Shown piece by piece: positions 30,401 to 62,544 of a stretch of 64,000 nt of DNA (position 1 is its first letter; each line of letters begins with the position of its first letter). The notes beneath the pieces were generated by a model. It worked only from the letters and a program-made list of their open reading frames with translations, did not search any database and was not told where the DNA came from. Source of the DNA: Undaria pinnatifida. Lineage: Eukaryota; Sar; Phaeophyceae; Laminariales; Alariaceae. The position numbers and the translations under genes were made by a program. Location: positions 9,548,381 to 9,612,380 of the forward strand of contig JABAKD010000011.1 of assembly GCA_012845835.1 (NCBI GenBank), read 5' to 3'.

Positions 30401-33400
30401 CTTCCTTTGCCAAGTCGCGGCCTATCCCTGATCAGGTGAGATTGATGTGTATAGTTTCTTCACCGCGGCTCTCCGCGCATATGCCCGTATTGGTGAAACA
30501 TGTAGGCAAATCGACACCGCAAACGCGACGTGCAGAGAGGAGTGTAGCGGTAGTAAATGCAATAGAACTGCCAACAGGGGTGTAGCGGTACAATTAATAA
30601 CGAGCAAATAAAAATACGGGAATGAACAAACAAATATTAATTGCTGATGTAAATGTACGATATACATCGAAGACTGGCGACAGCGGGAGCGTTTGCCGAG
30701 CTCGTGATCCTGTATGTTCTGGAAAAAGGAGCTCTCTCTGGGGCCGGCGGATATCCGGCATATGTTTATTTGTGATTGTACGGTTGATTGGCAATGGGAA
30801 GTGGCGTTTTTGCTCTTTTGTCGTACACGTTCTGCTGTTTTGTTTTTTTCACGACTTGGTACCATCTGTGCATCTCTGGTCACAGAGACAGCCTCGACAC
30901 TCAGTATTCCCACACTATCATAACGTGCGCCGGCGGCGTCCCTTTGAAAGTATACCACAGCAGCAACTGCGTTGGAAGCGGTCAGTTTTTTTCGTGGCTG
31001 AGAAGGGAAGGAGTGGGGAGGGTTCGGCTTCCGTGATGTGGGACAGATACTGGAAACGGTCTTTTTTTGGAGGGGTTGAGAGTGGGGGGGTCGGGGGATA
31101 GTTCGTCTTCGTGACTTCAGGACAGGTACTACTGCACATCTCCGCGGTGTAGCGCCAATTCTTGACTCCCGTCCCAGCGCCCTTCCTCTCCTGCGTTTCC
31201 AACGCGTCCACGGTATGTAGAACGCGCCTTGACTCCGTATTTTATTCACGTTTCGTTCTGTTTTCCCTCTCCCCAGTCTGCATTCTCCTCGTCTAGGTTA
31301 AGCAAAGGTGGCGCGGGCGCTCCACACTCCCCCCTCGGCAGCAGCGGTGGTGGTAGCGGTGGCGGTCCCGCCCTGGGCCCGGGCCCTCTGTGCTTGACCC
31401 CGCGGAAATCGATCATGCGATGTCCTCCGACCCCCCAGCGAACGCCAACGTGGGACGGCCTCGAGGACAGCCTGTTGCTTGAGGGAGCGGGCAGCGGTGG
31501 GCGAGTTTGCGGTGGCGAGTCGGCGGGGATGAGCAGCCGGCATTCGTTGCGGCAGAGCAGGCTTCTGGCTAGCGGCGGCGCTGCTGGTGTTGGTGCTAGC
31601 GCTGGTGCTGGTGGTGGTGCTAGGACGGGCATGGCGATCGATGCTGGGCTTGCCAACGCTTCTGGCGATCCGTTCAGCGCCTCTATTTTGAGCGCGGCCG
31701 GAGAGGCGGGCTTTGTGAGCAGCCGCGCCGGTAGCGGGAGAGGAGCCGGCGGTCACGATGACGATGGTCGCGGGGGTGTGGACGGCGGCACCGGCGGCCG
31801 AGGCGGGAGAGGCCGGGGAGGGAGAGAGCGGTCAGGCTTCGGTGGCAGCAGCGCAGGCGATATAAGCGGCCGGGGAAACGCCGCCAAATATGCCGCCAGC
31901 CTGGGCGCCGGTGGTGCGGGCGGCGGCGCAGCCTCGGGAGGGGGGGACGACACTCTCGGGTTCAAGCACGACTTCGTGCAGATGGGCCCGATCGGGGAGG
32001 GGGGATTTTCCGTGGTGTGGAAGGTGCGAGCGCGGGGCACTGGGCGGCTGTACGCGATCAAGCGGAGCAAGAGAGAGTTCAGGGGGAGGCGGGACCGGGA
32101 TCGGTGTCTCCTGGAGGCGAGGGCTCTGCAGCGGCTGGGGGAGCACCCGGGAGTGCTGAGGTTTGAGCGCGCGTGGCAGGAGGAGGGACACTTCTGCCTC
32201 CAGACGGAGCTGTGCGAGCTGGGAACCCTCAAGGATTTCCTCGAGAGGGTGAGAGAGGGAGGGACGAGTGAAGGAGGGAGGGAGGGAGGGAGGGAGGGAG
32301 GGAGGGAGGAAGGGAGGGAGGGAGAGAGAGAGGGAGGGAGGGAGGGAGGGAGGGAGGGAGGAAGGGGCGGAGGGAGGGAGGGAGGGAAGGAGGGGCGGAG
32401 GGAGGGTAGTGGTGGCATAAAGAGGAGTGAGGTGGCTTTCGTTTCGTTTTTGTGGTGTGCTAGACAAAATTAGGTGTTTGATGCGCTGCGCGCATGTTTT
32501 GTTGCCTGCTGGCTGTATCGGCTTTCGATCCCAATTGTTTTCGCGTGTGAAGGCTGAGACCCATTGGGTTGTCTTCCTATGCGCGGTCGCAAGCAGATGA
32601 GCACCTTGCTATCAACAGAGCTGAAGTATTGGCTGTTGTCATGTGTTCTTGTTTTGTGCCCTCGAAAGTGATGCAGCATTCTGCCCATTGAAAGAGCCCG
32701 ACCTGTCGGCGTCGAGCGCCAAGCTTTTTCCACGACCACTCAACGTTACTATTGTTTTGGTGACGATCGTTCATATAATCGGTGAATCGCGAATTGCACA
32801 CCCCCTATCCGTCCTCTCTTGTATCCCTCACGCGCCTTCCATTTCCTCCCTATGGTGAAACTCCATTATGCTGCCCTTGCCGTTGCTTGTGCGCCCGGAA
32901 CAACGGAATACAGCTGCCTTCACGGAGGGAAATACCGGAGGCGGCCGTGTGGCAGGTGTTGCAAGACGTTGGGCAGGCGTTGCGGCACGTTCACGCGACG
33001 GGGCTCGTACATCTGGACGTGAAACCGGCGAACCTTCTCATCGGTGACGAAGGTGCGGACCACCACACCTCCCCTTACGCGTGGCTATTTTTTTCTCGCC
33101 GCCCGGATTCGCTTTTTTTGTTGGCGCCCGATTTTTTCGTGGCCTCCATTTTGTTAGTTTTTGCCGCTTTTGGGGGGGCAGGGGGCGGGGGGTGTTTCCA
33201 TTGCTTCGTTTTTTCGGGCGGGTGGACGGAGAGATGGGCGGGCGATCGTGCGAGCGATTTAACGATGAAAACGCTTTGTCTAAGGTAAGGGGCTTTCGTA
33301 TTTAACAAGCTCATGTTTCGGTTGGATGAAATGCCGTAGTCAGGCGGTCTTTCGTTAAACATGAAACGCCTGTGGTGTGACGGTCAGAAACCGCACGGGA

Positions 33401-51400: not shown

Positions 51401-54400
51401 ACCTCAAAGCGGAAAACGTGTTCTTGTTTCTTTTTCAATATTAGAGTGCTGCTGTACCAGCTACTACTGTCCATTGGACCAGTGCCAACAGAACCCTCCT
51501 CTTGTGTGACCCAATGACTATTCCCAATGCTTCTTTTTCGCGGTTGGTCGCGCGGTCACCTGCCCTGTGAACAGGTCGAAAATGAGCAAGGATGGAGAAA
51601 GGTAATTGGCCTCATGCACACCTCTGGCGTACAGCTCACGGCCGACAACGCCTGGCTGACGGCCGCTAACCACACCCTCCAGGCGGACAACTACGCCCTG
51701 GAGCGGAAGCTCCGGGACCTGGAGAACGGGATGACGATGGCGGTGGCTGAGCGAGACTTCTTAGCTCTTAAACTTGCGGAGTTCGGTGTTGAGTCGCCGA
51801 CCAGACACATTGGAAACTTCGACATGTGCAGCACCAACGGCAACCACGATATGAACAACAACACCCCCGGCAAAAGCAACGACAGCTACATAAACAGCAA
51901 CGCCGACGCTAACGGCAACCACGGCAACAACGACGGAAGCTGCTGCATGGATGCAGGCTACTCGAGTCCATACGACTTGCGTGCCCTCGTTTCTCTGGCG
52001 GCAACCACCACGCCTCTGCCGCCATTGGAGATGACCACGGCAGCATCCCCGAGCCCAGTGGCTCTTCGCGCCCTCGCCTCTTTGGCCGCGACCACCACAC
52101 CGCTGCCGTTGCTGGCAACCGCGACGACTACGGCAACCCCTTCAAGGAGCCCAGTGGCTATGCGTTTGCTCGCGGCATTAGCGGCAGCCACCACGCCACT
52201 GCCGTCGGCAACGACCACAACTGCGACCACGAACGCGACCACGACCCCTTCGATTAATCCAGTCGTTCTGCGGTTCCTCGCGTCGTTGGCGGCGACCACC
52301 ACGCCACTGCCAGTTCTGTCAACAACGACCGCGGCAGCCCCTGTCGCCCACGCCACGCCCACCGCCACCCCCATGCGGATGTCACCAAACGACGACAACG
52401 AAGAGCAGCAGCGCGTTAAGGGGACCAAGCGCATGCCCCCAACGCCAGTCGCCGTCGCCGCCACCCCCGCCACCTCGACCACCCCTAGCATGGTCGCCGC
52501 TACCGCCGCCCCCACCATCACCGCCGTCCCTGCCGTCCTCCCCACTCCCACCGTCGCTGCCACCCCTGCCCCTGCCACCACCGTCGCTACGCCCACCCCC
52601 ACGCGAGAGCTGTTTACCAACGAGATCCGCAGTGGAAAGGTCACGGGATACTCGAGCGGGGGGCGTGCCCCTTGGGTCGGGGTTGGGGTCGGGGGCGCCC
52701 TCTTCTCCTCGCCACTGGTCGCTTCATCGGCTGAGAAGCAAACTACTGCCGCTAGGCGCGCCGCCGCGGACACGCAGTCTCCGTTGTCGGCGATACCCAC
52801 CAATGCGATGCGCCAAGCAGTGCCGTCTACCGTGACCAAGGGGAGGAAGGCCACGGCATGCCCCGCCTCGCCTGGCTTTGCGTCTCTGATAAGGTACGGT
52901 ACTTATAGGGTATGGTTTGCCTTGTTTCAGCCGCCACGCCTACTATACGTGCTGATTTTGTTTCCTTCAAGTTAAGGCTTCTTGTTTCAAGTTTCCGACG
53001 CTGTTCGGTGAAAGGGCCAGGGAAAAGGAATTAAGATTACGATTAACGCTGCTTTTTGGCGGGCGCCATATAACTCCCGATGTCCGATACGAGACTTTTC
53101 AGTGCAATGCAGTAGGCGTACGATCGAGAGCGCGTGGTTTTCGTGACGTTTTATACGTTTCGTTTTATAAGGGTGATGAAGCGAGTGCGTGATCTTCGTC
53201 AGTCATATTCGAAGTAAATTTCAGGTGGATTTGATGAAGATTTTTACCCCCCCCTCCCCCCCCCAGCCGCCTCCCTCCTGAGCAAGACCCCTTTTATCTT
53301 CACTCCTCCTGCTCTTGCCGCTTCTAAGAAATACCTGGTACAACATATCCAATCCAACATGTAACACCTCTCCCCGATAAAACAAGCCTTGTTCACTCGC
53401 CCTCGCCCCCGGCCACCTTGTGTTTGTTTGTCGCCCTGCCTCCTCTTTTCCAGGAGCACCGAAAGTTCCAAGGCAGCGGCGAGGCCAGCAGCGGAGACGG
53501 CGGCCAAGGGGATCGTGCCCGCCTATAGGAGGGTGCAAGGAGGCCGAACTTCCGTCGCAGAGAAGGAAGGGGCGAAGCGACTGAGGTACGATGTCTTCAT
53601 AGCGCGGTGACACTGAAACAGTGCTGTGTCGCCTGTTCTATTATATGGTACCGTGCGTACGCTGATAACTAGATCATATATACGGCAGACCAGTACGCTG
53701 CGCCAAATCAATGGCGATATTTCGTTGGCTGAACGGTGATGATACTTTGTTGACTTAACGGTGACATTACTGCATCTCGATCTTTGACTCATGCCGAGAA
53801 AGGAATGCCCTTGTGTTTTGTGAGGCTGTTGACCGTGGGGAACTTTATACTTGTTGTTCAACCAAAAACTGATTGCTTGCTGCGAGCAAAACGTGAAGCA
53901 GGTTCAACGCGATGAAGAATTTTACGGGATTGCCTCTAATCTTAGTTTGCTGTCTTTGCACGTTTTGGCCAGCTCCCCCTCTTCTCGGAACTCAGACCAG
54001 GGGTCACATAGCAGGCTCGCCCCTCCCGTTCCCCCCCTTAAGGGTGCATACCTTATTTTTGATGGCGAGATGAGTTAAGATTTGTTTTTCTCGCCAACTA
54101 GCTTCGAATTTTCCATACACCCGTGCTAGTCACGTATTATCAAAAGAATTTTTCCTTGGAGATCTCCTCGAGCTCGCGAAATCGACTTCACTTAGTATTA
54201 ATATTATTAGTAGCATCAATTAATAGTATTAGTAGTTACGAGGTAATCGACGCATAGTATTAGTATTAGTAGTTATGAGGATATCGACGCATAGTATTAG
54301 TAGTATTAGTATTTATGAGGTAATCGACGCATGGTATTAGTAGTATTAGTAGTTAGGTTTTTCATCTGTGGGGTAGCAGTTAAATTTTTGTCCAAATCAG

Positions 54401-57400
54401 TTTTTTTCACCAGGAGAGATCTTAAGCTCCCCAATCGAGGAAATCTGAGGGAAAAGATGGTGCACCTCCGTCGTAGCACGCGTCAAAACCCGATGGGCAA
54501 TACCTTGACCTAGACATACAAAAGTCATAATTGAATACTAAAAAAATAGACGATTTGGGTTAAGCCCGGAAATTCAGAAAATATTTGTGCCAGGAGGTGC
54601 CACCTCTACCGTAGCGCGCGTCGTCAGTCATAAACGACCTGGCCAAAAAGAGGTACCGTACCCCTATGGTAGCAGTGACGAGGTTTACCACCAGACTAGA
54701 CGAACTGGCCACAAAGAGGTACCGTACCGCTATGGGAGCAGTGGCGAGGTTTACCACTAGACTCGACCAACTGGCCAAAAAAAGGTACGGTACCCCCCAT
54801 GGTAGCAGTGACGAGGTTTACAACTAGACTAGGCCAACTGGCCAAAAAGATGTACAGCAGTATCCCCTATGGTAGCAGTGACGAGGTTTACCACCAGACT
54901 AGACCAACTGGCCAAAAAGAGGTACCGTACCCTTATGGTAGCAGTGACGAGGTTTACCACCAGACTAAACCAACTGACCAAAAAGAGATGTCGTACCCCC
55001 TATGGTAGCAGTGACGACGTTTACCACCAGATTAGACCAACTGGCCCAAACGAGGTACTGTACCTCTATGTTAGCAGTGACGAGGTTTACCACCAGACTA
55101 GACCAACTGACCAAAAAGAGGTACGGTACCCCCCATGGTAGCGGTGACGAGGTACGCCACTAGACTAGACCAAGAAGTGACCAAAAAGAGGCACCGTACC
55201 CCTACGGAAGCAGTGACGAGGTTTACCACTAGACTAGACCGCACCCACCAGAAAGAGGTACTGTACCTCTACGGTAGTAGTGGCGAGGTTTACCACTAGA
55301 CTAGACCAACTGCCCAAAAGGAGGTACAACTACACTCCTACGATAGCAGTGACGAGGTTTACCACTAGACTAGACCAACTGGCAAAAAAAGGTACGGTAC
55401 CCGTATGGTAGCAATGACGAGATGTACAACTAGACTCGACCAACTGGCCAAAAAGAGGTACCGTGCCCCTATGTTAGCAGTGACGAGGTTTACCACCAGA
55501 CTAGAGCAACTAGCCAAAAAGAGATACTGTAGCAGTGACAAAGGTTTACCACTAAACTAGACGAACTGGCCAAGAAGAGGTATTGTACCCCCTACGGTAG
55601 CAGCGACGAGGTTTATCACTAGACGAGACCAACGAGCCAAAAAGAGGCACCGTACCCCTACGGAAGCAGTGACGAGGTTTACCACTAGACTAGACCGCAC
55701 CGGCCAGAAAGAGGTACTGTACCTCTACGGTAGCAGTGGCGAAGTTTACCACTAGACTAGACCAACTGCCCAAAAAGAGGTACAACCACACTCCTGCGGT
55801 AGCAGTGACGAGGTTTACCACTAGACTAGACAAACTGGCCAAAAAAGGTACGGTACCCCCATGGTAGCAGTGGCGAGATTCACAATTAGACTAGACCAAC
55901 TGGCCAAAAAGAGGTACCGTGCCGCTATGTTAGCAGTGACGAGCTTTACCACTAGACTAGGGCAACTGGCCAAAAAGAGATACTGCACTTTTACGGTAGC
56001 AGTGACGAGGTTTACCACTAGACTAGACCAACTGGCCAAGAAGAGGTACTGTGCCCCGTACGGAAGCAGCGACGAGGTTTACCACTAGACGAGACCAACG
56101 AGCCAAAAAGGGGCACTGTACCCCTATGTTAGCAGTGACGAGGTTTACCACTAGACGAGACCAACGAGCCAAAAAGAGGCACTGTACCCCTACGTTAGCA
56201 GTGACGAGGTTTACCACTAGACGAGACCAACGAGCCAAAAAGAGGCACTGTACCCCTACGTTAGCAGTGACGAGGTTTACCACTAGACCGGACCAACTGG
56301 CCAAAAAGAGATACTGTACCCCCTGTGGCAGCAGTGACGACGTTTACCACTAGACTAGACCAACTGGACAAATAGAGGTACTGTGCCTCTATGGTAGCCG
56401 TGACGAGGTTTATCGCCAGACTAGACCAACTGACCTACAAGAGGTACGGTACCCCCCATGGTAGCAGTGACGAGGTACGCCACTAGACTGGACCAAGTGG
56501 CCAAAAAGAGGCACCGTACCCCTATGTTAGCAGTGACGAGGTTTACCACTAGACTCGACCAACTGGCCAAAATAGGTACGGTACCCCTATGTTAGCAGTG
56601 ACGAGATTACCACTAGACTCGACCAACTGGCCAAATAGAGGTACCGTACCCCTGTGTTAGCAGTGACGAGGTTTACCACTAGACTCGACCAACGGGCCAA
56701 AAAGAGGCACTGTACCCCTATGTTAGCAGTGACGAGATTTACCACTAGACCGGACCAACTGGCCAAAAAGAGGTACCGTACCCCCTATGGTAGCAGTGAC
56801 GAGGTTTACCACCAGACTAGACCAACTGGCCCAAAAGAGGCACTTTACCTCTATGTTAACAGTGACGACGTTTACCACCAGACTAGACCAACTGACCAAA
56901 AAGAGGTACGGTACCCCCCATGGTAGCAGTGACAAGATACGCCACTAGACTAGACCAAGTGACCAAAAAGAGGCACCGTACCCCTACGGAAGCAGTGACG
57001 AGGTTCACCACTAGACTAGACCGCACCGGCTAGAAAGAGGTACTGTACCTCTACGGTAGCAGTGGCGAGGTTTACCACTAGGCTAGACCAACTTGCCAAA
57101 AAGGGGTACTATTAATACCACACTTCCACGGTAGCAGGGACGAGATTTACCACTAGACTAGACCAACTGGCCAAAAAATGTACCGTACCCCTATGTTAGC
57201 AGTGACGAGGTTTACCACTAGACTAGAGCAACTGTCCAAAAAGAGGTACTGTACCCCTACGGTAGCAGTGACGAGGTTTACGACTAGACTAGACGAAGTG
57301 GCCAAATAGAGGTATTGTACCCCCTACGGTAGCAACGAAGAGGTTTACCACTAGACAAGACCAACGGGCCAAAAAGAGGCACTGTACCCCTATGTAAGCA

Positions 57401-59850
57401 GTGACGAGGTTTACCACCCAACCGGACCAACTGGCCAAGAAGAGGTACTGTACCCCCTATGGTAGCAGTGACGAGGTTTACCACTAAACTCGACCAACTT
57501 GCCCAAAAGAGGTACTTTACCCCTATGGTAGCATTGACTACGTTTACCATTAGACTAGACCAACTGGCCCAAAAGAGGTACGGTACCCCCTATGTTAGCG
57601 GTGACGGGGTTTACCACCAGACTAGACGAACTCCAAAAAGAGGTACTGTACCTCTATGTTAGCACTGACGAGGTTTACCGCTAGACTAGACCAACTGGCC
57701 ACAAAGAGGTAGGGTACCCCCCATATTAGCAGTGACGAAGTTTACCACCAGACTAGGCCAATGGGCCAAAAAGAGGTACTGTACCCCCTATTGTAGCAGT
57801 GACGATATTTACCACCAGACTAGACCAACGGGCCAAAAAGAGGTACAGTACTCCCTATTGTAGCAGTGACGATATTTACCACTAGACTAGACCAACTGGC
57901 CAAAAAGAAATAATATACCCCCTATGGTAGCAGTGACGAGGTACGCTACTAGATTAGACCGCACCGGCCACAAAGAGGTACTGTACCCCTACGGAGGCAG
58001 TGACGAGGTTTACCACCAGACTAGAGCAAGTGGCCAGAGAGAGGTACTGTACCTCTACGGTAGCAGTGGCGAGGTTTACCACTAGACTCGACCAACTGGC
58101 CAGAAAGAGGTAGAGTACCCCTATGGTAGCAGTGACGAGATTTACCACTAGACTGGACCAACTGGCCAAAAAAGAGGTACGGTACCTCTACGGTAGCAGT
58201 GACGAGGTTCACCACTGGACTAGACCAACTGGCCAAAAAGAGGTACTGTACCCCCTACGGTAGCAGTGACGAGGTTTACCACTAGACTAAACCAACTGGC
58301 CAGAAAGAGGTACTGCACCCCTATGTTAGCAGTGGCTACGTTTACCACTAGACTCGACCAACTGGCCAAAAAGAGGTACTGTACCCCCTATGGTAGCAGC
58401 GACAAGGTTTACCACCAGACTAGACCGCACCAACGACACCGACTAGGTACCTAGCGGATAGTAGAGGAACAGCACAGGGGCATTAGGTGGGCACTTGGAC
58501 GATAATGGGTTGGTGTTTCGCTTGAACAGGCCCGTCGATTACTTTTTATAATGGAAGAAGGTACTGTCTGTATCGTAGCCTTAGCACGATTCCATCAAGC
58601 CACGAGTTTTTGTTTTTGTTTTATACAATGCTGTACTGTGCAATGGCAAGCGCGTTGTCTTCCGTCTTCTGTTTAGAGTACATTTCCTGAAGATATTCTC
58701 CCTCCGCTCTGAGCGCAACACCTCCTTCCCCTCCTCCCTCCCTCTTTTGTCACTGCTGGCCATTATACTCCACCACTGTGCTTCCGTGTACTAAACCAAA
58801 ACATACCCCACGCCCCACGGCTACACACTAACTGCTCAATATCGTGTGATGTGTGATGTGTGACGTGTGATGCGTGATGTCCTTCTTTGCTAGGGGCACT
58901 TCCGGTTCAAACGCGGTGGTGAAGCCGACCGCTGTGACGGAACCGACGGATATGGTGTCCACAGCCAGGGCCAGATCGACCGACGGCGAGAAGCAGCAAG
59001 GGACGGCACGGCGGTTGAGGTACGATATATTGTCGGGGCTTTCCTCGGTTACGGTTTTTGAAGTTAGCACATTCTCGTATTTTCCTGCGGGATCTGCTGT
59101 GGTTTCCTCGGCACTTTGAGGTATTTGGTGTATTGGATTTGGCGAGCACGGTTGTTGTTTGGGCGGGAAAACGTCACCGCGGGACTTTCCAGTCCTGTTT
59201 TGTATGGGACATCAAAAGCACGGTTGTTGCTTGGACGAGAAAGTCACCACAGAACTTGAGGGTTTTGCCAGGGCGCTCTCTCCGGTGTTCGTGCTTTATT
59301 CTGGCACCCCACAGGACAGGTCCTCCACCCGAACCGGCATGGCCGACCCCGAGAAGGCCGAAGGGATGGCAGGCGATTGAGGTGCGGGATTGATTGGTCA
59401 ATCCCTTTAGAAACACGCTCACTGGCGTTTTATGGCACACATTACTTGGAATTAGTGTAAGGTCGTTTTTCTCATTTTTAAAAGGGTGGGTTAACAGCGC
59501 GGTTACCTCGCAAATAGTATATATACCTAGTATATACAGATGGCAACAATAGTAATAACAACAACAACCGTTGGCCAGTTATTGCACACAAACCGCGTGT
59601 AAACCAGTTTCAAGCACCCTCTCCGCCGCCCTTCGCCCCCCGTCCCTAATTTACAACCGCTTGTTACTGTAGGAGCTCCGACCGGCCGAGAGACGTGGAC
59701 GCCAAGAACACCGCCCCCTCCGTCCGAGGCCAAAAGAAGGCGGGTTCGGGGACTGCTGGGGGGGTCTCGTCACGCACCCGGCAGGCGGTGGCCGCCAGGA
59801 AGGCGGCGGCGGCGGGGGGGAAGGAGGTAGCACGCAGGCGGTGGAGGTAG
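48432..59850 (+). CDS. Multi-exon gene of unknown family: coiled-coil, TTTPLP-repeat, basic-tail protein
   Basis: Best model: exons 48432-48590, 49348-49373 (26-nt microexon), 49487-50132, 51635-52893, 53454-53585, 58894-59019, 59673-59850 (TAG). All GT-AG with matching phases (0,2,0,2,2,2), about 841 aa. Without the microexon, exon 1 can join directly at 49512 or 49521 in phase 0. Parts: acidic ALYDELVEYQ start; Gln/His-rich disorder (HQQQHQQHQQQHQQ); a predicted helical or coiled-coil stretch spanning exons 3-4 (VIDAYECAMEKSMKNAEDTK, then LQADNYALERKLRDLENGM); four tandem LASLAATTTPLP repeats of about 30-36 aa; a Pro/Thr/Ala linker; and a basic Ser/Arg/Lys tail made by three short exons, ending ARRRWR. 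I do not recognise a family. The layout (coiled coil plus basic tail) recalls chromosome-associated or cytoskeletal scaffolds, but nothing proves it. A further possible exon at 59315/59320-59381 breaks the frame. Confidence 0.6.
51961..52330 (+). repeat. Coding tandem repeat, four LASLAATTTPLP units
   Basis: Within exon 51635-52893. The units contain RALVSLAATTTPLPPL, RALASLAATTTPLPLL, RLLAALAAATTPLPSA and RFLASLAATTTPLPVL. Each is followed by a variable Thr/Ala/Ser-Pro spacer ending PVxxR. Unit lengths differ by whole codons, so the frame has been kept under selection or by in-frame expansion. Confidence 0.9.
54405..54625 (+). repeat. REP-A-like degenerate copies at left edge of the satellite
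   Basis: Two partial matches: TTAAGCTCCCCAATCGAGGA ... CACCTCCGTCGTAGCACGCG (to 54482) and GATTTGGGTTAAGCCCGGAA, ATTCAGAAA ... CACCTCTACCGTAGCGCGCG (to 54621). They lie inside the intron directly before the 67-bp satellite. Confidence 0.6.
54631..58445 (+). repeat. ~67-bp minisatellite array, ~3.8 kb, inside an intron
   Basis: About 55-57 units of 64-70 bp. The consensus parts are GGTAGCAGTGACGAGGTTTA, CCACTAGACTAGACCAACTG and GCCAAAAAGAGGTACCGTAC, then CCCTA. Unit length is not a multiple of 3, so protein-like frames drift and end; none is a gene. Blocks of several units recur as higher-order repeats (for example 54990-55210 and 56780-56990, and 55188 onward against 55644 onward). It lies in the intron between exons ending at 53585 and starting at 58894. 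Confidence 0.95.
59315..59381 (+). pseudogene. Frame-breaking exon-like segment in the second gene
   Basis: Flanked by an acceptor (CCCCACAG at 59314, or CACAGGACAG at 59319) and by a donor TTGAG/GT at 59382, the same edge as the true exons ending at 53585 and 59019. With the second acceptor it starts R-SSTRTGMADPEKAEG like its siblings but meets TGA just before the donor. Read backward from the donor in the sibling phase it ends GRRLR. Its length (67 or 62 nt) is not a multiple of 3. It is either a decayed duplicate exon or a poison exon giving a truncated isoform. Confidence 0.45.
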
Positions 59851-60995: not shown

Positions 60996-62042
60996 GTGTT
61001 AGGTGTGATCGGGTGGGGTGGCCGAAGGGGCGGGGAGGTGGGGTCGGAAGATAGTCGGGTGATATTATTAGTTGCGCATGCATCGCTTGTTTCCGCCCGC
61101 AAGTTGCCTGTGCATTTCGTTGTTTTTTTCGGGAGTTGGGTGAAAGGGGTAATACTCGTGCCGTATCCAGGGAACCTTAAAAAACTGCATCCACATATTT
61201 CATGGGACACACTACTTGGAGATAGTGTGGGATAAGCTCTGAAGCAGACAAAGGGCATAAATAATACCTAGGGCTGTCTAAATCGGAAAGGAGATATTTG
61301 TTGTTGCTGGTGGTGGTCTGGAAGTGCACATGTGCCTCGCAAACCTTGAGAGTGTCTCCCGAACAAAGCAGTGCCGGCTTTTTGGTTATCGCCTGTTGCG
61401 CCCCCGTCTGTACACAGTGGGTGTGTATGGTGTAGGATGACTGCTGCTTGCAGACAGATTCGGCGATACGATCGAACGAGCGACAAGGGGAGGATATGAT
61501 ATGATAGTAATATTATTAACATTTTCATGGAGGCGTGTTTCTTGAAGCCGCTTCTTCCCTTGCCGTATATCAGTGTTAATTGTACTCGGGGACGGATGTT
61601 ATTACTAGGTTTCTTACCGTAATCGCAGGAGGACACTCAGCGTAATTGATAGACTAAGCCGCCTGTGGTTGCCCCGTGTGGGTCCATCGGCTCTAAATAT
61701 GGTGCACTGCTGCGGTATTTGTCGGAGCACATGAGGTTGCGGAGGCGCGGGTGCTTGCCGCAACGGGGGCTGTCGTCGCAGTGCCTGTTGCTTATTATAC
61801 GTACACATGAGTCTTGGCGGTGTTTCTTCTACTGCCTCGTGCAGACTAACAATTGTACAGTTTTTTTTTTTTGTGCAATTCCAACTGCCGCGGCAAGGAA
61901 TGGCGAACGACTTACGCTTGGGATTGAAGATACCACGGAAGCCGTATGCATAATAATGAGAGGGCATACTTATAAGGTGCTGGGACGCGTGCTGCGGCGG
62001 TAGAGGTTCGCCTTTTTTCTGAGATTGACGTCAATTGGAGCT
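60996..62042. other. Intergenic, weak open frames only
   Basis: Minus-strand frames at 61268-61636 and 61614-61967 are open for about 120 codons each but have no recognisable domain or splice support. Confidence 0.35.
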
Positions 62043-62249
62043 GGAGACCTCTCCCAAAAACTGATTTGGAGAAAAAAAAAACTGCTACCGGATGACAAAT
62101 TCCATGGCCGGCCCCAGGTATACAGAGATAATATATTATAAAAAAATGGCCGATTTTTTCCGACGATTTGGGTTAAGGAGCCCCGTCATTCAGAAACCGT
62201 TTCAGCCAAAAAGGTATACCTTAACACCTCCCTCTATCGTAGCACGCGT
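62043..62249 (+). repeat. REP-A dispersed repeat, copy 4 (long form)
   Basis: GGAGACCTCTCCCAAAAACTG ... AAAATGGCCGATTTTTTCCG, ACGATTTGGGTTAAGGAGCC, CCGTCATTCAGAAACCGTTT ... GGTATACCTTAACACC ... CTATCGTAGCACGCGTCC. The most complete copy together with 10697-10934. Confidence 0.8.
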
Positions 62250-62544
62250 CCAAGGAATAGTCAATTTTAACACTGAAAAATATGTAGAGGGGGCGCTGGC
62301 GCTACCGCTCGCCTCGTGAGCACCTCCGTCGGGCTTGTTCCTCACCGGTATTGTCGAGTTTATCCCCCATGCCTTGTGTTTTTAAGTGTACACTCGAACA
62401 AATGGGTGAACCGGACTATCTTTGCCTTGATATTAGGGCTATGAAGTTTTTGGCGGTAACTCACATCGTGACGGCAAATATATTTGGCCCACACTACACG
62501 CACGTCCAGACGCCCGGGTCTACCTAGAACAGAGATGGAGAGAG

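What the first reader, a model, noticed from the sequence alone, without database searches (positions are those of the whole stretch)
53586..58893. A 3.8 kb satellite with higher-order structure sits inside an intron of a protein gene
About 56 copies of a ~67-bp unit fill an intron of 5.3 kb whose flanking exons keep phase 2 on both sides. Blocks of units recur as larger repeats (54990-55210 resembles 56780-56990; the block from 55188 resembles the one from 55644), a pattern usually seen in centromeric-type satellites rather than in introns. Such an array may affect splicing, transcription or local chromatin. The array is seen directly; the intron placement depends on the gene model.
Basis: partly seen in the sequence, partly recalled or inferred. 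Interest (0 to 1): 0.75.

Follow-up and report, generated by a model that had tools for sequence, protein, structure and literature searches.

The report
Intron minisatellite grown from transposon end
A 57-copy DNA repeat fills one intron of a gene; the genome scans found it only there and in the same intron of two neighbouring gene copies, and about half of each unit resembles the end of a common small transposon, so it looks like a local, probably neutral repeat and not a centromere-type satellite.

Summary
The array is real: 54639-58426, 57 copies, period 66-67 bp.

It is not a centromere-type satellite. A genome-wide scan for a 34-base stretch of the unit gave 70 matches in 511 Mb, all in three arrays within about 125 kb, all on one strand, reversed-pattern control 0. 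The other two arrays lie in the same intron of two tandem paralogues, 19 units each.

About half of the unit (positions 3-36) resembles the right end of an abundant ~267-bp inverted-repeat (MITE-like) element: 0 of 1000 shuffles reach its mean score over 21 copies. Two fragments of that element lie directly upstream of the array.

The intron is supported by conserved GT/AG sites, phase 2, and open frames in copies B and C; no RNA was available. Copy A (the window's) has a frame-breaking deletion in a later exon.

Best reading: a locus-private minisatellite seeded by a transposon end, inherited by gene duplication, reshaped by unequal exchange and A-B gene conversion; probably neutral.

The parts
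51575..52893 (+). large coding exon (coiled-coil-like start, then Ala/Thr/Pro-rich), donor AAG|GT, ends in phase 2
   Evidence: open in copies A, B and C; gap columns A 3, B 9, C 15, each indel a multiple of 3 (alignment); 4.7% A-B divergence against 8.1-11.5% in introns; no Pfam match
53454..53585 (+). exon just before the array intron, phase 2 at both ends
   Evidence: 1/132 (A-B), 3/132 (A-C), 2/132 (B-C) differences; donor GAG|GTAC in all three copies
53586..58893 (+). 5.3-kb intron holding the array (inferred; no RNA data)
   Evidence: GT/AG ends and phase conserved in copies A, B and C
54219..54355 (+). second, 40-bp minisatellite: 3.5 copies here; main arrays of 23.8 copies in copy B and 37.2 in copy C
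   Evidence: genome-wide pattern scan (up to 2 mismatches) 45 of 45 matches in this intron of the three copies, control 0
54372..54484 (-). fragment of the ~267-bp MITE-like element, left end, reversed
   Evidence: E 4.85e-9 against the reference copy 61984-62250
54549..54622 (+). fragment resembling the right end of the same element, ending 16 bases before the first full unit
   Evidence: 54549-54621, E 2.69e-6 against an element end at window-based 178185-178261; end motif at 54597-54622, 4 of 26 mismatches
54639..58426 (+). 66-bp minisatellite, 57 full units (an 8-base partial unit precedes it at 54631-54638)
55041..55309 (+). block of units 7-10, duplicated at 56826-57091
55177..55509 (+). 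block of units 9-13, duplicated at 55633-55965
56099..56296 (+). units 23-25, neighbouring pairs 97% identical (recent local duplication)
57896..58426 (+). last eight units, colinear with the last eight of copy B; holds a probable A-B gene-conversion tract covering at least about 58029-58294
   Evidence: sites counted in bins of 133 bases
58894..59019 (+). exon after the array intron, phase 2 at both ends
   Evidence: 10/126 (A-B), 8/126 (A-C), 6/126 (B-C) differences
59320..59381 (+). next exon; in this copy it carries a 1-base deletion relative to B and C, giving a stop
59673..59847 (+). probable last exon
   Evidence: open in B and C, gaps multiples of 3; homologues in the three minus-strand paralogues

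Best explanation
A locus-private minisatellite inside one intron. Part of its unit (positions 3-36 of 66) came from the right end of a MITE-like element, fragments of which sit next to the array (inferred from similarity, position and orientation). It was already tandem before the gene was duplicated, because the last eight units are colinear between copies A and B, and all 19 between B and C (colinearity shown; order of events inferred). The three tandem plus-strand gene copies carry it in the same intron (shown). The interior then turned over by unequal exchange or slippage: 57 units in A, 19 in B, 19 in C, with block duplications in A (units shown, mechanism inferred). A stretch of at least about 270 bp was probably exchanged between copies A and B (informative sites shown; direction unknown). 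The array is most likely removed with the intron and has no selected function (inferred).
For: Restriction to one locus: 70 of 70 pattern matches (up to 3 mismatches) in three arrays on C13, all plus strand, reversed-pattern control 0; 40 of 40 blast matches in the same arrays (four candidate regions scored). Same intron in three paralogues: the 5' and 3' intron flanks differ by only 8.0-8.8% between A and B or C, and the exons match. B and C colinear over 19 of 19 units (score 158.4, permutation maximum 51.1 of 500); A units 50-57 colinear with B units 12-19 (score 97.1, maximum 40.5). Conversion: at 58029-58294 A=B/not C 25 sites, B=C/not A 2; at 58428-58560, outside, 1 and 8; the last eight units differ by 4.2% A-B but 11.0% A-C and 8.5% B-C. 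MITE origin: mean local score against 21 element copies 26.2, shuffles 15.6 with sd 1.1, 0 of 1000 reach it; in a profile search the real unit (7.2 and 6.9 bits) outranks the best shuffle (2.5); the element family has 4614 first-look candidates genome-wide, 40 of them scored. The matching interval of the three minus-strand paralogues has no comparable array (longest TRF row 68 bases).
Against: Only about 34 of 66 bases show the MITE similarity, the profile score is low (7.2 bits), and 1 of 1000 shuffles reached the best single-copy score of 33.0; against the single reference copy the match was within shuffles (18.5 against mean 16.0, maximum 29). No target-site duplication is evident at the reference element (flanks). 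The best A-C run only equals the permutation maximum (21.2), and faster change in C could add to the conversion signal. Selection on the exons is weak: dN/dS (Nei-Gojobori) 0.62 A-B and 0.93 A-C over the first three exons, 0.60 B-C over five, and exons 58894-59019 and 59320-59381 diverge about as much as introns. RNA folding of one 200-base piece is somewhat stronger than shuffles (z -2.5, 4 of 200 as strong), so a role of structure is not excluded.
Confidence: 0.8

Rival explanations
1. A fragment of a centromere-type or other abundant satellite with higher-order repeats, placed inside an intron.
For: Tandem units of regular size with block-level duplications beyond permutations in A; a three-unit block repeated five units on is seen in B (score 32.9, permutation maximum 24.9) and in C (22.4, 95th percentile 15.8, maximum 23.6).
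Against: No match outside the three intron arrays in 511 Mb; no regular higher-order period in A; carried along in a gene duplication. Centromeric sequence may be missing from the assembly.
Confidence: 0.04
2. A functional intronic array: it offers many 5' splice-site-like motifs (GAG|GTAC, as in the donors of the exons on either side in this copy) or structured RNA and so tunes splicing or expression of the three paralogues by copy number.
For: 34 sense-strand GAGGTAC in the 3.8-kb array (9.0 per kb; 7 antisense) against 5 in the other 60.2 kb of the window (0.08 per kb); the motif is the donor core of exons 53454-53585 and 58894-59019; RNA fold z -2.5.
Against: Several MITE-like copies carry GAGGTA at the matching place, so repetition alone explains the count; unit number differs threefold between copies; no relatives available to test conservation.
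Confidence: 0.06
3. No intron: the array lies between two genes, or copy A is a pseudogene and the array is ordinary repeat in dead sequence.
For: Copy A has a frame-breaking 1-base deletion in exon 59320-59381; dN/dS is not far from 1; no protein relative at E 0.001 or better among the 7999 candidates scored and no Pfam match for three exons tried. In the minus-strand paralogues the two exons around the intron were not clearly found: only weak matches to the first (E 0.05-0.1, at two places about 3 kb apart) and none of its own to the second; a scan for phase-2 exons there returned nothing.
Against: Copies B and C read open through five exons across the array, with phase 2 kept at the junctions and GT/AG conserved; exon indels between B and C are multiples of 3; exon 53454-53585 differs at 1-3 of 132 sites where introns differ by 8% or more between A and B; the minus-strand paralogues keep the large exon and the last two exons.
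Confidence: 0.12

Closest known systems
Intronic minisatellites / VNTRs (definition recalled)
   Same: Unit of tens of bases, kilobase array at a discrete gene locus, interior turnover by block duplication and exchange, differing copy number between copies
   Different: Compared here between paralogues of one assembly, not between individuals; shared by three tandem genes
Satellite DNAs derived from MITEs or transposon ends (review PMC12628747, passages read; Xenopus Xstir and miDNA4 as described there)
   Same: Unit resembles a terminal part of an abundant short inverted-repeat element, and element fragments flank the array; the review names terminal inverted repeats of DNA transposons among satellite sources
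   Different: The two Xenopus MITE cases in those passages involve internal or captured repeats; here the array is confined to one locus and only half of the unit shows the similarity
Centromeric satellites with higher-order repeats (alpha-satellite type; recalled)
   Same: Tandem units and block-level repeats
   Different: Single locus, kilobases long, no regular higher-order period

Membership tests
Minisatellite (VNTR-type locus) | Tandem unit of about 10-100 bp in a kilobase-scale array at a discrete locus | tested here: met
   66 bp x 57, 3.8 kb; matches only in one cluster
Minisatellite (VNTR-type locus) | Copy-number change between copies of the locus | tested here: met
   57, 19 and 19 units in paralogues A, B and C; between paralogues only
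Minisatellite (VNTR-type locus) | Length polymorphism in a population | not testable with these tools
   One assembly held
MITE-derived tandem repeat | Unit shares ancestry with a dispersed short inverted-repeat element | tested here: met
   0 of 1000 shuffles reach the mean score over 21 element copies; 1 of 1000 reached the best single score; about 34 of 66 bases only
MITE-derived tandem repeat | Source element is multi-copy, short, with terminal inverted repeats | tested here: met
   267 bp; both ends of the reference copy begin GACGCGTGCT; 4614 first-look candidates, 40 scored
MITE-derived tandem repeat | Target-site duplication around element copies | tested here: inconclusive
   None evident by eye at the reference copy and its B and C counterparts (flanks); other copies not examined
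Centromeric satellite | Abundant in the genome, at centromeres | tested here: not met
   70 of 70 matches in one 125-kb cluster; centromere positions are not known here
Centromeric satellite | Regular higher-order repeat period | tested here: not met
   Identity by lag flat in A, 0.83-0.86 for lags 1-49

The most novel reading that the evidence does not exclude
The array is a copy-number-tunable splicing element: dozens of transposon-derived 5' splice-site-like motifs, sharing the core of the gene's own donors, act as decoys in one intron, and the three tandem paralogues differ in splicing or output because they carry 57, 19 and 19 units.
Probability: 0.04. Interest if true: 0.75.

Novelty: new member of a known kind. 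Interest (0 to 1): 0.3.

Why it matters
It gives a compact natural record of how a satellite may start: transposon-end fragments beside the array, colinear units at its 3' end, turnover inside, probable gene conversion between arrays about 70 kb apart, and a young retrotransposon insertion in one array. It also corrects the suspicion of a centromere-type satellite in an intron.

Tried and rejected
Rejected: centromeric satellite; coding array (one frame of the consensus is open, but 32 of 57 units are not 66 bases long and the longest plus-strand open frame inside the array is 108 residues); selection on the dyad GGTAC-N-GTACC, whose centre (position 19) is the most variable place over 94 units but not an outlier among 27 paired units (3 changes there; largest 5 at other positions).

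Led nowhere: tRNA scan, Rfam at gathering scores, protein homologues, Pfam on three exons, a scan for phase-2 exons in the minus-strand paralogues (none returned). The number of paralogues in the whole genome could not be counted. Papers: PMC7058681 and PMC12628747, passages only; all others seen only in search listings.

Full report
Observation. The window lies at G000:C13:9548381-9612380 of a 511-Mb genome in 68 contigs. TRF reports one array, 54639-58426, period 66, 57.0 copies; my segmentation gives 57 full units and a short partial one. Units differ by 16% on average. No global higher-order period exists.

Distribution. A 34-base piece of the unit with up to 3 mismatches matches 70 places in the genome, every one in three arrays on C13 between 9603050 and 9728441, all on the plus strand; the reversed pattern gives 0. 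An earlier blast search gave 40 matches in the same arrays, though it scored only four candidate regions. The 40-bp minisatellite next to it is equally private: 45 of 45 matches (up to 2 mismatches) in the same intron of the three copies, control 0. In the 264 kb examined, seven TRF arrays, overlapping rows counted once, have length at least 400 bp and period at least 10; five of the seven are these two repeats in this intron.

Gene cluster. I fetched 200 kb around the window. Self-comparison shows three plus-strand gene copies: A (window 48.2-64.2 kb), B (about 114-135.6 kb) and C (about 170-186 kb, window-based coordinates), and three minus-strand, more distant paralogues at about 85-93, 102-109 and 157-165 kb. 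All three plus copies carry the array in the same place. In the matching interval of the three minus copies the longest TRF row is 68 bases. Their exon structure there is not resolved: the exon before the array gives two weak matches in each (E 0.05-0.1, about 3 kb apart), the exon after it none of its own, and my scan for phase-2 exons returned none.

Gene model. Five exons, 51575-52893, 53454-53585, 58894-59019, 59320-59381 and 59673-59847, joined in phase 2, are open in B and C from end to end. A-B divergence is 4.7% in the large exon and 0.8% in the exon before the array, against 8.1-11.5% in introns and 9.3% upstream; the three later exons are at 6.9-8.1%, close to introns. dN/dS is 0.62 (A-B) and 0.93 (A-C) over the first three exons and 0.60 (B-C) over five. 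The gene is therefore probably real but only weakly constrained. Copy A has a 1-base deletion in 59320-59381 that brings a stop; whether this is real or an assembly error cannot be told. No RNA data were available, so the splice itself is inferred.

History of the array. B and C are colinear over all 19 units. A's last eight units are colinear with B's last eight. The first unit of B and of C is closest to A's first unit (0.955; A unit 33 follows at 0.939), but A's first unit matches B's eighth equally well, so the 5' edge is only a weak hint. The array thus most likely predates the duplication and the interior changed afterwards: 49 against 11 units before the shared 3' end. Within the shared end, 58029-58294 has 25 sites where A equals B but not C and 2 where B equals C but not A, while the adjoining flank 58428-58560 shows 1 and 8; the last eight units differ by 4.2% A-B, 11.0% A-C and 8.5% B-C, and the first eleven by 4.0% B-C. 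I read this as conversion between A and B; faster change in C may add to it. In B an LTR retrotransposon of 4,544 bases is inserted in the array: 0 of 412 compared positions differ between its LTRs, with a 5-base duplication GTGAC; C's array is uninterrupted, so the insertion most likely came after the B-C split.

Origin of the unit. The sequence upstream of the array (54372-54622) contains pieces of a dispersed family; a full copy lies at 61984-62250, 267 bases, both ends starting GACGCGTGCT, and the genome search gave 4614 first-look candidates, of which 40 were scored. Twenty further copies were fetched. In several of them the right end reads GCCAAAAAGAGGTATACC...CCTCTATCGTAGCACGCGTC, and unit positions 3-36 read GCCAAAAAGAGGTACTGTACCCCTATGGTAGCA. 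The mean local score over 21 copies is 26.2 against 15.6 (sd 1.1) for 1000 dinucleotide shuffles, none of which reaches it; one shuffle reached the best single score. Against the single window copy alone the match was within shuffles. The remaining half of the unit has no identified source.

Function. The array is rich in GAGGTAC, the core of the donors of the exons on either side: 34 sense copies, 9.0 per kb, against 0.08 per kb elsewhere in the window. A 200-base piece folds as RNA with z -2.5 and as DNA with z -1.5. Repetition of one transposon-derived unit could give all of this; nothing here demands a function.

Comparison. Intronic minisatellites and transposon-derived tandem repeats are known kinds; the review PMC12628747 (passages read) names terminal inverted repeats of DNA transposons among the sources of satellite units. 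Five paper searches listed none that by title concerns this locus, but none was aimed at it by name, so this does not show that it is unpublished.

Noticed in passing
C13:9673232-9677775 (window-based 124852-129395): LTR retrotransposon of 4,544 bases inserted in copy B's satellite array; 0 of 412 compared LTR positions differ, GTGAC duplication.
   Followed up: partly
window 60901 to window-based 97984, and 132273-169756: A duplication of about 37 kb (alignment 37,650 columns, 97.1% identity) that runs out of the window.
   Followed up: no
59320-59381: Copy A, which has the largest 66-bp array, carries a 1-base deletion and a stop relative to copies B and C.
   Followed up: partly
53454-53585, 58894-59019, 59320-59381, 59673-59847: Four successive exons end in similar Arg-rich peptides (KRLR, RRLR, GRLR, RRWR, as read in copies A or B and C) and may be duplicated cassettes; similarity is weak (best about E 0.2 between the second and third).
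   Followed up: partly
61984-62250: Full-length copy of an abundant MITE-like family (4614 first-look candidates genome-wide, 40 scored), present at the corresponding place in copies B and C.
   Followed up: yes
32998-33195: Kinase-like motif (HATGLVHLDVKPANLL); Pfam Pkinase below its cut-off (E 0.24). A WEE1-like kinase is recalled, not tested.
   Followed up: no
54639-58426, unit position 19: The centre of the dyad GGTAC-N-GTACC is the most variable place of the unit (46% of 93 units of the three arrays differ from the commonest base).
   Followed up: partly
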